Shown here: positions 58,907 to 63,186 of the stretch, in pieces
Layout: each line of letters starts with the position of its first letter
Position numbering within the stretch: position 1 is the stretch's first letter
Assembly (NCBI GenBank): GCA_002869385.1
Contig: PKTB01000022.1
Coordinates: forward strand, 62,001 to 126,000
Origin: Marinilabiliales bacterium
GTDB lineage: Bacteria; Bacteroidota; Bacteroidia; Bacteroidales; ML635J-15
Length of the DNA: 64,000 nucleotides
Direction: 5' to 3'
Notes under the pieces: model-generated
What the model saw: the letters and a program-made list of their open reading frames with translations, nothing else
What the model was told of the DNA's origin: nothing
Databases searched by the model: none
Made by a program: the position numbers and the translations under genes

Positions 58907-59149
58907 TCAATTGCTGTTTTTTGCACTTATTTCTGAGATTTTAGTTTTAATTTCGTTTAAAACTGCTCCCGAGAATTGCATAATGATTTCATAATCCCAC
59001 TTGCCCGATAAGATATCATCAAAACTTATTTTTGTGATATTTGGATTCTTACCCGGGTCCCAGTAATCTTTGTAAATTACCTGCAAATTCTCGATGTAAA
59101 TAATACGTGAGTGATAGTTCTCGTGTTTTTCCCAGCGTGTTTTTCGCAT
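58907..59149 (-). CDS. Small protein coupled to the PD-(D/E)XK nuclease gene
   Basis: 80 aa, no signal peptide, basic N-terminus (MRKTRWEKHENYHSRIIYIE), central YKDYWDPGKNPNITKISFDD, and a C-terminal amphipathic helix (FSGAVLNEIKTKISEIS). The ATG overlaps the stop of the nuclease gene in TAATG, so translation should be coupled at fixed stoichiometry. No known domain recognised. Candidate regulatory, immunity or adaptor subunit of the nuclease (inference). Confidence 0.7.
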   Translation of the reverse strand: MRKTRWEKHENYHSRIIYIENLQVIYKDYWDPGKNPNITKISFDDILSGKWDYEIIMQFSGAVLNEIKTKISEISAKNSN

Positions 59150-60999
59150 TATTTATTAATTGCTTTGACTATTCGGTCTTCTTTTATAAGAACATCTTTC
59201 ATTAATAGTTGGTATGGGAATTGTTTATGTTTTGAAACTTTAAATGCATCTAAAATTTTACTTAAGGAAGCAGCAGTGATTAATGAAATGTTTAACTCAA
59301 AATCTAATTCACAGTCATTAATAAAATCATCACTAAAATCGGGTGCGATTAGTAGAGATTTGATTACATTATAGCCATTAAAAGTTGCGAGGTCGATATA
59401 TGATTTAATTTGTCTGGAAACACTACTGAACTTGTTGTACCCACTTTCTTTAACCGTTTTGCATTCAATAACAATTACATCATTATTCCCTAGGTTAATA
59501 ATTACATCTATCTTATCTTTTTTAGTATTGATAGATTTTTTGAGCTTCTCATCTACATCAAAACCTAATTTTTCAAAAATGTTTTTTGTAATTTCCTCAA
59601 ATTTTAAACCTAGTTCACTTTCTTTTATATTTATTCCATTATCTTTTAACTCATTTTGTTTTCTAAATCCTATATTTTCATAGTTTTCAATGTATAGGTT
59701 TTCTGTATCCTTATATGCGTCAAGTATGTTTAAAACTAAATTGCCTCTTTTTTTAATTTCAAATTTATCACAAAATTCATTTAAATTATCTTTGTTTAAG
59801 GTATCAAGAATATCTCTAGGTTTAATATTGTAATCTAAAAGATACTCGCTTTTTAGAACATATTCATCTTGTAGTTCAAATTCATCTTTGAGATTTTTAT
59901 TTAACTTTGGGAATGCGTCGTTAAGGTCTATTAGTAGCTTATCATAACCGTCTACAGAAATGCAAACCTTGTCATCTAATTCAATTTCTTCAAAATACTC
60001 AATAATATTGCTAACTTTTTCCTCTAAAGTTACTCCTTTAAGGTTAGTTGTCATATTAAAACAGTTAGTCCAGACTTCATTTAGGAATTTTTTCTTATCT
60101 GTCAGAGATGTTCCTTCTTTATGAAGGTCATTTATTACTAAAAGAGAAAATGGAATACCTTCATTGATAATATCAATGATTTTTTCTTGGAATGTTTTTT
60201 TAGTGTCAATATTATGTTTTCTACAAACTAAATTAATCTGAGGTTCTCGTAATTGTTTTAAGAATCTTCTGTAAAACTTATCTGCAATTTCTTTTTCTCT
60301 TAGTTTCCTTAATACTCTTACAATCTCATCTGGGATATAGATTTGGCTGTTCTTCTTTGAATAAAATATTATGCCAATATTCTTAAGATTATTAATTAGA
60401 TTATCTATTTCGACTCTATTTGGTTTGATAATAATGTAATTAATAAGCTTTATTTCTTCTAAAGATAGTTCTAATTTATTAGCTAAAGTTAGTAATATCG
60501 ATAACTCATCACTAGTAACTTTAGGATCTCTATTTTGCTCTAAATCATTATAATATGCAGTATGTAAACAGTCAAGATAAATTGAATAATCTCTTTTCCT
60601 TGTATCATCGATATTTGACTTTTCAGATTCAAGTTCTTTTTTTAATTCATTTGTTTTTTGCTTTATACTTTTTAATTCATTTTCATAAAGTCTAGAGAAC
60701 CAATCTTGTTTCATTAAATTATTACCATCTCTAATAATGATATCGACAACAATATCAAGTTGAGAAGATGTTTCAAAAAACTCATGTTTAAGGTGTTCAG
60801 AGAATTCTTCTTTAATTAATGAAAAAATGCGTGAAATGTTTTGACTATCTGTTTCTTTTAAGTTATTATTGCTGGCAGATAATATCTTATCAATTTCCTT
60901 TAAGTTCTTAGGATTACAATTTATTATGTTGTCAATGATTTTTAGGAATGAATTTTTTTCAAGTGAATTAACTTTTTCTAATACCTTTTCTAGTTTCAT
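59149..60999 (-). CDS. Large protein with SAP-like segments and C-terminal PD-(D/E)XK nuclease domain
   Basis: 616 aa, Lys/Asn/Ile-rich and more AT-rich than its neighbours. N-terminal 130 residues are helical with a coiled coil (NELKKELESEKSNID). Two segments look like SAP-type helix-extension-helix DNA-binding motifs (about 265-300, VCRKHNIDTKKTFQEKII; about 405-435, NEFCDKFEIKKRGNLVLNI). The C-terminal domain from about 460 shows the nuclease core: Glu468/469 (FEEI), Asp498 (KIDVIINL), Glu512-x-Lys514 (VIECK), then SRQIKSYI with Gln530. Probably DNA cleavage; a defence role is suggested by the isolated two-gene layout and composition, without a methylase or known defence gene nearby. Confidence 0.72.
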   Translation of the reverse strand: MKLEKVLEKVNSLEKNSFLKIIDNIINCNPKNLKEIDKILSASNNNLKETDSQNISRIFSLIKEEFSEHLKHEFFETSSQLDIVVDIIIRDGNNLMKQDWFSRLYENELKSIKQKTNELKKELESEKSNIDDTRKRDYSIYLDCLHTAYYNDLEQNRDPKVTSDELSILLTLANKLELSLEEIKLINYIIIKPNRVEIDNLINNLKNIGIIFYSKKNSQIYIPDEIVRVLRKLREKEIADKFYRRFLKQLREPQINLVCRKHNIDTKKTFQEKIIDIINEGIPFSLLVINDLHKEGTSLTDKKKFLNEVWTNCFNMTTNLKGVTLEEKVSNIIEYFEEIELDDKVCISVDGYDKLLIDLNDAFPKLNKNLKDEFELQDEYVLKSEYLLDYNIKPRDILDTLNKDNLNEFCDKFEIKKRGNLVLNILDAYKDTENLYIENYENIGFRKQNELKDNGINIKESELGLKFEEITKNIFEKLGFDVDEKLKKSINTKKDKIDVIINLGNNDVIVIECKTVKESGYNKFSSVSRQIKSYIDLATFNGYNVIKSLLIAPDFSDDFINDCELDFELNISLITAASLSKILDAFKVSKHKQFPYQLLMKDVLIKEDRIVKAINK

Positions 61000-61165: not shown

Positions 61166-62917
61166 TTACTCTTTCACCTTATATGCATTCCAGTAGTATT
61201 CATATTCGTGCCATACAGAGACATCATTTCTATGCATTCCGGATTCGTGAAAAGTAGCAAAAGGAATAGGCATTTTAGTGTATTTCTTTTCAGACTCATA
61301 ATACGGAATTTCTAATTCTATTGTCTTGCCGGTAGCCGCATCTTTGAATTTAGTTTTCTTTATTTTTTTCGTTCTTTCATAGACTTCAAATTCTTCTCCA
61401 GCAGGGTTGAATTTTGCTGGGTCCTGTAAGAATGGTGACCAGGTTGGGAAGGTAGGTGTTTCCTTTTCGTAGTTTACCATATACTCGATAGTAAGGTCAG
61501 CAGGGCCACCATAGACCTCACCATCCATGTCAAGGTATAGTTCACCATCAACAAGATAACCAGTAATATCAAACTGTCGGGTTTCTGGTCCGTTTTGCAA
61601 ACCTTTATAATAATACTGTATTTGTGTGACTCCGGGTATTGATAAGAGCATGCCTACAGGTGGTGTGGCAGTTGCTGCATCCATAAATAGTCCCTTTGCA
61701 ATGTCAACCCCTGTAGTTTTAATCATTTCTTTAATTGTTGTCGGGCCAACAGCATTTCCACCTTGTATGGCATTTGCTCCGACTGCACACTCACATAGTG
61801 CAGCTTGCTGCTGTGCTTCCAAGTCAAGAGCTTTGATTTTAAGAGGAGCTTTATAACCTAAATATTCAGTTGATATTGAAAGTCCACTCATAGCGGCCAT
61901 TTTTGTGTATTTTGCAAGTTCACCCTGCAATCCAAGAAAAGTTCCTTCGAAAGATTTTACTGCAGACTGGCTAATGTTTTTACCTAAATCATAGAAAAAT
62001 GTTAATTCTGCCATTAAGTTTACTGCCATATTAACTTGCTCGGTTAGCATTGCAACACCACATAGATTTGGAATTAGATTGTATGTTACTTCTCCAGTTC
62101 CTGTGACCTTTCCTTCTTCATCAATATATATGTCAAAAAGGACTGAATGTTCTACCATCAATGTCATAATAACTTTATCTCCTTCGAATGGTAAATCATT
62201 TTCTTCGACTCCGGTAAACTGGGAGGCAAATTCACCAGCAGTATGTTTAAACATTACTTCGTAACCAAACCCAAACCCAACATATCGACCGACATAATCT
62301 TTGAATTCATCTTCTATGTCGTTTAAGTTAAAATCAGCATATGGGTCAGTATTATTGGGGTCATTTGGATTAAAAGTGCCACCATTATTCCCTGGATTTG
62401 AATTGTTGTTTTCACCACCATTTCCGTTTCCGTCAGATTCATTCCCGTTATCACCACCATTATTTCCATTGTCAGAATCCGGACCTGTTTCAGGGTCATT
62501 ATTGGCCTGCTCATCATTTTCCTCACCACCAGATAATCTTTTCCAAGTAGAACTACCATATTCAACACCCCCAAGAACTACAAAAGGAAGAGTGAGGACA
62601 CCATCTGTTATGCTAAACTCAGCATTGTCAGCAGCAAAATCAAAGTCATCAAAACTCATTGTAATCAGGTTTTGACATGCGTTGAAACTTCCTCCTGAAG
62701 TAATATCAACATCAGGCATTACTGCATGAATTGTTGCTGTATTCCCAACTAAACTTAGAGTAATAGTTGCATCGTCCCTGGGAGTTGTCCCATCAGAATC
62801 TGCAAGTAATAAATATTCCCCACTAATCTCTGCATTTTGACATCCATAACGTGATTGTGCCATGCTAACACTAACAAGAGCGAAAGAAATCACAAATGTT
62901 ACAATAAAAGTTTTCAT
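61166..62917 (-). CDS. Exported protein with Asn/Gly/Asp-rich linker, unknown function
   Basis: 583 aa from the ATG at 62917 (ATGs at 62920 and 62932 are also in frame). Signal peptide MKTFIVTFVISFALVSVSMAQ. Residues about 25-130 form a small beta domain with two Cys. About 130-195 is a low-complexity Asn/Gly/Asp linker (DNGNNGGDNGNESDGNGNGG). The rest is a globular region with Cys-containing ALCECAVGANAIQGGN. It ends in SVWHEYEYYWNAYKVKE without a T9SS signal. Not recognised; probably periplasmic or outer-membrane associated. Confidence 0.78.
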   Translation of the reverse strand: MKTFIVTFVISFALVSVSMAQSRYGCQNAEISGEYLLLADSDGTTPRDDATITLSLVGNTATIHAVMPDVDITSGGSFNACQNLITMSFDDFDFAADNAEFSITDGVLTLPFVVLGGVEYGSSTWKRLSGGEENDEQANNDPETGPDSDNGNNGGDNGNESDGNGNGGENNNSNPGNNGGTFNPNDPNNTDPYADFNLNDIEDEFKDYVGRYVGFGFGYEVMFKHTAGEFASQFTGVEENDLPFEGDKVIMTLMVEHSVLFDIYIDEEGKVTGTGEVTYNLIPNLCGVAMLTEQVNMAVNLMAELTFFYDLGKNISQSAVKSFEGTFLGLQGELAKYTKMAAMSGLSISTEYLGYKAPLKIKALDLEAQQQAALCECAVGANAIQGGNAVGPTTIKEMIKTTGVDIAKGLFMDAATATPPVGMLLSIPGVTQIQYYYKGLQNGPETRQFDITGYLVDGELYLDMDGEVYGGPADLTIEYMVNYEKETPTFPTWSPFLQDPAKFNPAGEEFEVYERTKKIKKTKFKDAATGKTIELEIPYYESEKKYTKMPIPFATFHESGMHRNDVSVWHEYEYYWNAYKVKE

Positions 62918-63186
62918 CATCTCATATAGCAAAGATAGGATATTATAGTTTAAAAGTTCTAAGTTGATTTTATAAATTGCGTTTTTGTTATGGTCTTTGC
63001 GTTATGAGAGAATTTCTATAAACTTCATTTTATACTACAGTTAAAGGCAAAGAAACATTCCAAAAACAGATGAGTTAGTTTATTTACCACCTGACTGCGA
63101 ATTGCCCCGATAAATATCGAGGGTGGCTGGTGTTACAAATATTTGACCTCTCGAGGTCATTTTATTGCTTTGAAAAAACTAAATAC
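62918..63186. other. Intergenic stretch with short palindromes
   Basis: No gene seen. It contains a palindrome ccccgata-aa-tatcgaggg (63104-63123) and a short inverted repeat gacctc-tc-gaggtc (63144-63157). Possibly regulatory or remnants of dispersed repeats. Confidence 0.4.

What the first reader, a model, noticed from the sequence alone, without database searches (positions are those of the whole stretch)
58907..60999. Two-gene nuclease module, candidate undescribed defence system
A 616 aa protein with coiled-coil N-terminus, two SAP-like DNA-binding segments and a C-terminal PD-(D/E)XK core (Glu468, Asp498, Glu512-x-Lys514, Gln530) is translationally coupled (TAATG) to an 80 aa basic protein of unknown family. 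The pair stands alone, is more AT-rich than its surroundings, and has no methylase or helicase partner. This resembles compact solitary anti-phage or DNA-targeting modules, but I recognise no described system with this architecture.
Basis: partly seen in the sequence, partly recalled or inferred. Interest (0 to 1): 0.72.

Follow-up and report, generated by a model that had tools for sequence, protein, structure and literature searches.

The report
Solitary mobile restriction-like nuclease gene
A single, frequently transferred bacterial gene encodes an uncharacterised nuclease with a FokI-type cutting domain and no protective methylase found beside it; it most likely cuts foreign DNA on its own, and the small gene next to it in this genome is not part of the system.

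Summary
The 616-aa ORF is real: a full-length family (about 611-618 aa) with the predicted catalytic residues invariant in 40 of 40 aligned sequences and, where measurable, strong purifying selection. The predicted model (mean pLDDT 89.8) places residues 430-616 on the FokI / Nt.BspD6I cleavage fold (Z 14); a winged-helix-like segment lies at 79-237. The 'two-gene module' is not supported: the 80-aa ORF was found beside none of 40 other nuclease genes and in none of 25 other genomes of the genus, and it has host-like GC while the nuclease is AT-rich. The nuclease is a one-gene unit: patchy, in many unrelated places, lower in GC than its neighbours in 38 of 41 loci, transferred between phyla, carried inside a prophage, and lost in one genus leaving 3' scars. 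In 28 carrier genomes no D12 or C5 methylase gene lies on the same contig within about 190 kb (some contigs are short), and two single-contig carriers have neither class. The window protein has no PADLOC, NCBIfam or above-threshold Pfam match. Best reading: an undescribed stand-alone restriction-like enzyme against mobile DNA, modification- or structure-dependent (type IV-like or Shedu-like in logic). Defence is inferred, not shown.

The parts
59149..60999 (-). 616-aa solitary nuclease gene (the feature itself)
   Evidence: ORF; full-length homologues; invariant catalytic residues; AF2 model mean pLDDT 89.8
59152..59712 (-). residues 430-616: PD-(D/E)XK nuclease domain, FokI / Nt.BspD6I cleavage-domain fold
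   Evidence: VIA-align Z 14.4 to FokI 2fok_B (155 aligned, rmsd 3.5) and 14.2 to N.BspD6I 6qnz_A (174 aligned, rmsd 3.3); Pfam Mrr_cat sub-threshold at 465-517, E 0.0013
59458..59466 (-). Glu512-x-Lys514 motif
   Evidence: Glu and Lys invariant in 40 of 40
59506..59508 (-). Asp498, putative metal ligand
   Evidence: invariant in 40 of 40
59596..59598 (-). Glu468 in the first helix of the nuclease core
   Evidence: invariant in 40 of 40; helix 460-477
59410..59412 (-). Gln530 in the invariant R529-Q530
   Evidence: invariant in 40 of 40
60289..60765 (-). residues 79-237: long helical hairpin plus winged-helix-like segment, candidate DNA reader
   Evidence: model; MukF/JetABC/MntR-like matches, Z 7-8 on the full model but only 4-6 on the N-terminal model, i.e. 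a common fold and no proof of kinship
60127..60282 (-). residues 240-291: first SAP-like helix-loop-helix segment
   Evidence: helices 240-247, 252-261, 270-280, 284-291 in the model; no Pfam SAP match shown
59713..59850 (-). residues 384-429: second SAP-like segment
   Evidence: helices 384-389, 394-398, 403-412, 421-429; no Pfam SAP match shown
58907..59149 (-). 80-aa ORF, judged NOT part of the system
   Evidence: no homologue at 40 other nuclease loci (tblastn E <= 1); 0 of 25 other same-genus genomes; two weak hits in 394 other genomes of the class, at most 49 residues at 35%; none in viral contigs or plasmids; GC 0.342 against 0.259

Best explanation
The gene encodes a stand-alone restriction-like nuclease that acts against mobile DNA. 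Shown: invariant PD-(D/E)XK residues on a FokI-like predicted fold; a single-gene, horizontally moving unit; no D12 or C5 methylase found linked. Inferred: the N-terminal helical/winged-helix/SAP-like part reads a feature of foreign DNA (most likely a base modification, alternatively a DNA end or structure), and the C-terminal FokI-like domains then pair on the DNA and cut it. Because the target feature is absent from the host chromosome, no protecting methylase is needed and the gene can move alone.
For: Nuclease fold Z 13.7-14.4 against FokI/N.BspD6I and 12.6 for R.BspD6I2, above HindIII 10.3, Hna 8.9 and Shedu 7.7. Catalytic residues 40 of 40. dN/dS 0.02-0.09 in the 4 of 12 pairs that gave a value. 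Patchy: 29 of 390 genomes of family f41, 4 of 61 relatives, 2 of 395 of the phylum, each count including the query or centre genome. Lower GC than neighbours in 38 of 41 loci, mean -7.2 points. Inter-phylum transfer: the copy in a Desulfuromonadales MAG sits inside the Bacteroidota clade, 95/89. In one prophage it lies between head-maturation-protease and tail-completion genes. One-gene presence/absence with 3' scars at the dnaK locus. No D12 or C5 methylase on the same contig within about 190 kb in 28 carriers; 5 of 28 have neither class, two of them single-contig genomes. Known or candidate defence neighbours in 5 of 41 loci. Precedent: stand-alone winged-helix fusion endonucleases that cut methylated DNA (PMC11037411: abstract, section 14, passages).
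Against: No functional data. The Foldseek match to BspD6I has a low TM-score over the whole chain (0.19, rmsd 25): only the nuclease domain matches. 36 of 41 loci had no PADLOC neighbour that I could assign, many stand among housekeeping genes, and no control rate exists. Very strong purifying selection is more than I would expect of an arms-race gene. Carrier genomes are not depleted in methylases; if anything they have more (D12 11 of 28 against 10 of 52, p 0.065; C5 20 of 28 against 25 of 52, p 0.06), so there is no conflict signature for either class as a whole. The N-terminal part has no confident fold match. No match in 50,697 phage records.
Confidence: 0.5

Rival explanations
1. Shedu-like DNA-end or DNA-structure sensor: the N-terminal part clamps free ends or replication intermediates of phage DNA and licenses the nuclease, with no role for base modification.
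For: Single gene with a large N-terminal part plus PD-(D/E)XK, as in Shedu; Shedu nuclease domains are in the structural list (8ti9_B Z 7.7, 8ps5_A Z 7.2); end sensing by Shedu is described in passages of PMC12904381.
Against: FokI/BspD6I match far better (Z 14); no Shedu-type Pfam or PADLOC match for the window protein.
Confidence: 0.22
2. A type II/IIS-like restriction enzyme protected by a methylase encoded elsewhere in the genome.
For: FokI/BspD6I cleavage fold; distant cognate methylases were predicted for 57 of 272 solitary restriction genes (PMC3488263, abstract; section 19 also read); methylases tend to be commoner in carriers.
Against: Two single-contig carrier genomes, G556 and G768, show neither D12 nor C5 methylase; one-gene transfer across phyla would be expected to be lethal without a co-moving methylase (inference). 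N6_N4 and HsdM classes were not tested.
Confidence: 0.1
3. Accessory DNA-repair or recombination nuclease, not defence.
For: Very low dN/dS in the 4 measurable pairs; neighbours that read as housekeeping genes, such as dnaK, lgt, rnf and mnmA (named by eye).
Against: Patchy presence and loss, low GC, prophage carriage.
Confidence: 0.1
4. Selfish or homing-type gene that drives its own insertion into intergenic sites.
For: Single-gene unit with sharp limits; many different sites; in genus g54 a monophyletic set of six copies has six different immediate neighbourhoods.
Against: No common target sequence or terminal repeat found: among 400-bp flanks of 41 loci, shared sequence appeared only within a genus or within the Pseudoalteromonas-type group; the g54 palindrome is a genus-wide repeat.
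Confidence: 0.06

Closest known systems
FokI and Nt.BspD6I/R.BspD6I (type IIS restriction and nicking enzymes)
   Same: C-terminal cleavage-domain fold (Z 12.6-14.4, 152-177 residues aligned) and the order DNA-binding part then nuclease
   Different: 13-18% identity; no D12/C5 methylase found linked; N-terminal part not matched to their recognition domains
Winged-helix fusion endonucleases, type IV 6mA-dependent (DpnI, FcyTI, HhiV4I; PMC11037411)
   Same: winged-helix-like module fused to a nuclease, stand-alone gene, rare methylase neighbours
   Different: nuclease fold is FokI-like and C-terminal behind about 430 residues; modification dependence untested here
Shedu (SduA)
   Same: single-gene PD-(D/E)XK protein with a large N-terminal sensor part; nuclease domain in the structural list at Z 7-8
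   Different: closer to FokI than to Shedu; no sequence-profile match
Mrr (Pfam Mrr_cat, type IV)
   Same: weak sequence similarity: 14 of 29 members at E <= 0.1, best 2.8e-4; window protein sub-threshold over 465-517
   Different: no Mrr N-terminal domain among the matches shown; N-terminal architecture differs
PHROG 34709
   Same: full-length match, E 1.5e-113, profile 614 positions: this is the family
   Different: PHROG gives no function

Membership tests
Type II/IIS restriction-modification (FokI-like) | FokI-type PD-(D/E)XK cleavage domain | tested here: met
   predicted fold Z 13.7-14.4 against FokI and N.BspD6I; catalytic residues invariant 40 of 40
Type II/IIS restriction-modification (FokI-like) | linked cognate methylase | tested here: not met
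   no D12 (PF02086) or C5 (PF00145) hit on the same contig within about 190 kb in 28 of 28 carriers (places compared); some carrier contigs are short (shortest 9.9 kb, G056); N6_N4 and HsdM classes not tested
Type II/IIS restriction-modification (FokI-like) | FokI or BspD6I recognition domain | tested here: inconclusive
   not among the listed matches of the N-terminal model
Type IV / modification-dependent restriction | stand-alone nuclease gene | tested here: met
   no partner shared across the 41 loci
Type IV / modification-dependent restriction | fused DNA-reading domain | tested here: inconclusive
   winged-helix-like segment in the model, matches weak
Type IV / modification-dependent restriction | cuts modified DNA only | not testable with these tools
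   needs biochemistry; no methylase depletion in carriers; none of 28 carriers has a D12 hit below 1e-40 against 5 of 52 controls, p 0.16, a cut-off chosen after seeing the data
Shedu | Shedu nuclease sequence family | tested here: not met
   no such Pfam or PADLOC match for the window protein in scans at E <= 10 (HMMER filters drop most matches above about 0.1)
Shedu | single gene with large N-terminal sensor part | tested here: met
Mrr | Mrr_cat domain above the Pfam cut-off | tested here: inconclusive
   window protein 19.3 bits against cut-off 21; best member E 2.8e-4
SAP-domain proteins | SAP profile match | tested here: inconclusive
   none among the families shown for 29 members at E <= 0.1 (25 of 36 families shown); helix-loop-helix geometry is compatible
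Homing endonuclease | insertion into one conserved target site | tested here: not met
   many unrelated sites; no flanking sequence shared outside close relatives

The most novel reading that the evidence does not exclude
An undescribed single-gene immune system: a widely transferred enzyme family that couples a new helical/winged-helix/SAP-like sensor to a FokI-type nuclease and restricts phage DNA without any methylase, in some lineages teamed with a voltage-gated-type ion channel gene directly beside it.
Probability: 0.3. Interest if true: 0.65.

Novelty: new variant of a known kind. Interest (0 to 1): 0.45.

Why it matters
FokI-type cleavage domains are best known from methylase-protected type IIS enzymes and genome-editing fusions (recalled). 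A methylase-free, self-sufficient natural family with this fold would be a new route to self/non-self discrimination, a source of new DNA-reading domains, and a simple one-gene candidate for phage-challenge tests. The family is annotated only as 'hypothetical protein' in the three Pseudoalteromonas records seen.

Tried and rejected
Rejected: (1) the 80-aa ORF as partner. (2) The palindrome AAATACCC-N6-GGGTATTT upstream of several g54 copies as a mobility signal: among 30 genomes of that genus, 18 have it, 17 of them 3 to 12 times and one once, and at 23 copies in 20 fetched regions it lies between varied genes; its excess near the nuclease remains unexplained. (3) An ion channel as general partner: adjacent in 2 of 41 loci (L017, upstream with 2 bp between; L064, downstream with 7 bp between) plus a possible decayed start in L007 that BLAST does not support (E 3.2); of 13 channel genes found in 390 genomes of family f41, 12 showed no nuclease in flanks of about 1.5 kb (shorter at contig ends). 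(4) Fold of the N-terminal part: no Foldseek match below E 1; best VIA Z 6.2; 4rea ('A Nuclease DNA complex', FAN1 by recall, Z 5.2) and MukF/Jet-type winged helices are listed but not convincing. Absence of a family from these lists is not taken as absence of the fold. (5) Sequence searches of solved structures found nothing useful.

Literature: eight searches ran (one search did not run). In their listings I recognised no paper on this family; three accession numbers of Pseudoalteromonas members gave no paper. Papers used: PMC11037411 (abstract, section 14, passages), PMC3488263 (abstract, section 19), PMC12904381 (passages), PMC12839542 (passages, not used further). What is said of FokI, BspD6I, Mrr and Shedu beyond these is recalled.

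Limits: neighbour genes were called by a simple ORF finder and most names of housekeeping neighbours are by eye. The PADLOC neighbour scan took 145 of 156 listed neighbours (left out: four of phage locus L024, four very long ones in L009, L023, L062 and L076, two DnaK copies, one in L078) and its output showed 25 of 106 families. I then scanned 30 chosen neighbours to assign the matches: SIR2, HerA, AbiEii, PDC-S01 (two), PDC-S72 and PDC-M48B were assigned; the mad3/AriA matches in two of them are ABC-type ATPases (my reading); the reverse-transcriptase and PD-T4-2_B matches stayed unassigned. The tree used 40 of 41 rows; the row with an in-frame stop was left out. Methylase controls were 52 handles picked by number from the same family, not matched by genus. 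dN/dS gave no value in 8 of 12 pairs.

Full report
Observation. The 616-aa ORF lies at 59149-60999 on the minus strand and the 80-aa ORF at 58907-59149, overlapping as TAATG. The nuclease gene has GC 0.259 and the 80-aa ORF 0.342, in a window of 0.340. Neither protein has a PADLOC or NCBIfam match in scans at E <= 10. Pfam Mrr_cat matches residues 465-517 of the large one just under the cut-off (19.3 against 21 bits). PHROG 34709, of unknown function, matches it along the full length.

Family. Full-length homologues were found in 3 of 60 relatives besides the window's own genome (61-67% identity), in 1 of 394 further genomes of the phylum (57%), in 7 loci of named genome contigs (61-66%, one of them truncated and interrupted), in 29 of 390 genomes of family f41 (51-62% in those aligned), in 3 viral contigs (one at 61%, two at 33-35%) and on 3 Pseudoalteromonas plasmids (35-36%). 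No match was found among 50,697 phage records. Of the 29 f41 genomes, 24 carry an intact full-length frame, one has an in-frame stop, two partial copies lie at a contig end and two are decayed fragments (contig lengths).

Nuclease core. In 40 aligned homologues Gly464, Glu468, Asp498, Glu512, Lys514, Lys517, Lys523, Ser525, Arg529, Gln530 and Tyr534 are invariant; Asp483 is Asn in 4. An AlphaFold2 model from 29 family members has mean pLDDT 89.8. Structural comparison puts residues 430-616 on the cleavage domains of FokI (Z 14.4) and N.BspD6I (Z 14.2), then R.BspD6I2 at 12.6 and HindIII at 10.3. Foldseek's best match is also Nt.BspD6I (E 3.9e-4, but TM-score 0.19 over the whole chain). The BFVD viral library gave nothing below E 0.001. 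The N-terminal 430 residues folded alone (pLDDT 90.6) gave no match below E 1 and at best Z 6.2; a winged-helix-like segment within 79-237 recurs in the list.

The pair is not conserved. The 80-aa protein is absent from 25 other genomes of the genus, including G024, which has the nuclease, and from the other 40 of 41 nuclease loci, also by tblastn at E <= 1. In 394 other genomes of the class only two weak matches appeared: 49 residues at E 7e-4 inside a 1910-aa frame, and 34 residues in a frame with a stop. Viral contigs and plasmids gave none.

One-gene mobility. In the 41 loci, directly adjacent genes of one family recur within genus g259 (three loci), g240 (two) and g251 (two) and in two Pseudoalteromonas loci; outside a genus only an ion channel (L017, L064) and an aminotransferase-like gene (L007, L075) recur. 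No gene accompanies the nuclease generally. The gene is lower in GC than the mean of its neighbours in 38 of 41 loci, by 7.2 points on average (Wilcoxon p 6e-11). The tree places the copy of a Desulfuromonadales MAG with G664 of f41 (95/89), puts G056 of the window's order with G646 of f41 (99/96) and splits genus g240 over three places, two of them in neighbouring groups, so transfer is frequent. In genus g259 (10 genomes) the place behind dnaK is filled in three; G655 holds only a match to 23 codons near the 3' end, and G693 the last 20 codons, on a contig whose end carries the dnaK terminator and which has another gene before the scar; in G703 and G638 the aligned dnaK side and the aligned downstream gene are 45 and 181 bp apart; the other three showed no nuclease match. 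Compared with G703, the unit present in G508 is about 2.05 kb: the gene plus about 150 bp before and 40 bp after. In G003, the relative that keeps the window's downstream gene (73% identity), neither nuclease nor 80-aa ORF lies in front of it.

Link to phages and defence. In L024 the gene lies between a head-maturation-protease gene and a tail-completion gene of a prophage, on the opposite strand (Mu-like by gene order, recalled). In L025 it lies some 2.6 kb behind tail-region genes, one of which is a baseplate wedge gene. For L023 only the label of the collection and one PHROG of unknown function support a prophage. Neighbours matching PADLOC models of known or candidate systems occur in 5 of 41 loci: SIR2 and HerA in L015 (E 7e-178 and 3e-155), AbiEii in L018 (3e-107) with a PDC-S01-type ATPase, PDC-S01 in L006, PDC-S72 downstream in L017 (8e-145) and PDC-M48B, a metallo-beta-lactamase-fold protein, in L023 (1.5e-100). 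L014 has a metallophosphoesterase and an ORC-CDC6-like ATPase instead, without a PADLOC match. The other loci gave no assigned defence neighbour, unassigned reverse-transcriptase and PD-T4-2_B matches apart, and no background rate was measured.

Selection. Four of 12 pairs gave dN/dS values: 0.087, 0.027, 0.019 and 0.030; the other 8 gave none, as expected when synonymous sites are saturated. The protein is under strong constraint.

Methylases. In 28 carriers and 52 non-carriers, D12 methylases were found in 11 and 10 genomes and C5 methylases in 20 and 25 (Fisher p 0.065 and 0.06), so there is no depletion and perhaps mild enrichment. In none of the 28 carriers does such a gene lie on the same contig within about 190 kb of the nuclease; the nearest is in G576, about 196 kb away. 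Several carriers are drafts with short contigs (G056 9.9 kb, G664 21 kb), so for them this says less. G556, G589, G646, G697 and G768 have neither class, and G556 and G768 are single-contig assemblies. This speaks against an obligatory D12 or C5 partner; other methylase classes were not tested.

Mechanism. What is shown is a conserved nuclease core on a predicted FokI-like fold, a mobile one-gene unit and no D12/C5 methylase found linked. That it defends against mobile DNA, that the N-terminal part reads a modification or structure, and that cleavage needs pairing of FokI-like domains are inferences from family knowledge. The nearest published logic is the stand-alone winged-helix fusion endonucleases acting on methylated DNA (PMC11037411); the main rival is Shedu-type sensing of DNA ends (PMC12904381 passages).

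Verdict. I file it as a new variant of a known kind, the solitary restriction-like nucleases.

Noticed in passing
L017:11098-11874 and L064:11475-12260: Voltage-gated-type ion channel genes (Pfam Ion_trans), 48% identical to each other, sit directly upstream (L017, 2 bp between) or downstream (L064, 7 bp between) of the nuclease; a short similar start follows the nuclease in L007 but without statistical support.
   Followed up: partly
L020, L055, L056, L057, L061 (upstream of the nuclease): A genus-wide 22-bp palindrome AAATACCC-N6-GGGTATTT with variable centre lies within about 400 bp upstream of the nuclease, exact in three of six g54 loci (L020, L056, L057), nearly so in L061, with half of it left beside a transposase-like insertion in L055; most genomes of the genus that have it hold only 3-12 copies.
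   Followed up: partly
L014:9885-12846: Metallophosphoesterase plus ORC-CDC6-like ATPase pair directly after the nuclease on a Pseudoalteromonas plasmid, in the position where L015 has SIR2 plus HerA: possible exchangeable defence slot, without a PADLOC match.
   Followed up: partly
L017:7801-11874: In the only other carrier found in the window's genus the nuclease stands between a PADLOC candidate single-gene system (PDC-S72, E 8e-145) and the ion channel gene.
   Followed up: partly
L013:5568-6602, L014:6476-7567, L019:7022-7582: A gene annotated as HNH endonuclease (L013, L014) or weakly matching HNH (L019) lies directly upstream of the nuclease.
   Followed up: no
G000:C1:132741-133712: The window's own genome has a C5 methylase match interrupted by one in-frame TAA.
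   Followed up: no
window 61166-62932: 588-aa secreted-type protein with an Asn/Gly/Glu-rich linker, found in only the window's genome among 26 of the genus.
   Followed up: no
L005:8302-13022: In the NORP67 MAG the nuclease sits between two genes that read as rnfC and rnfD (by eye), same strand, inside what looks like an rnf operon.
   Followed up: no
G693:C212 (L097, L112): Only the last 20 codons of the nuclease remain, with an unrelated gene of about 380 aa before the scar; a similar protein (by eye) occupies the place behind dnaK in G682 and G565.
   Followed up: partly
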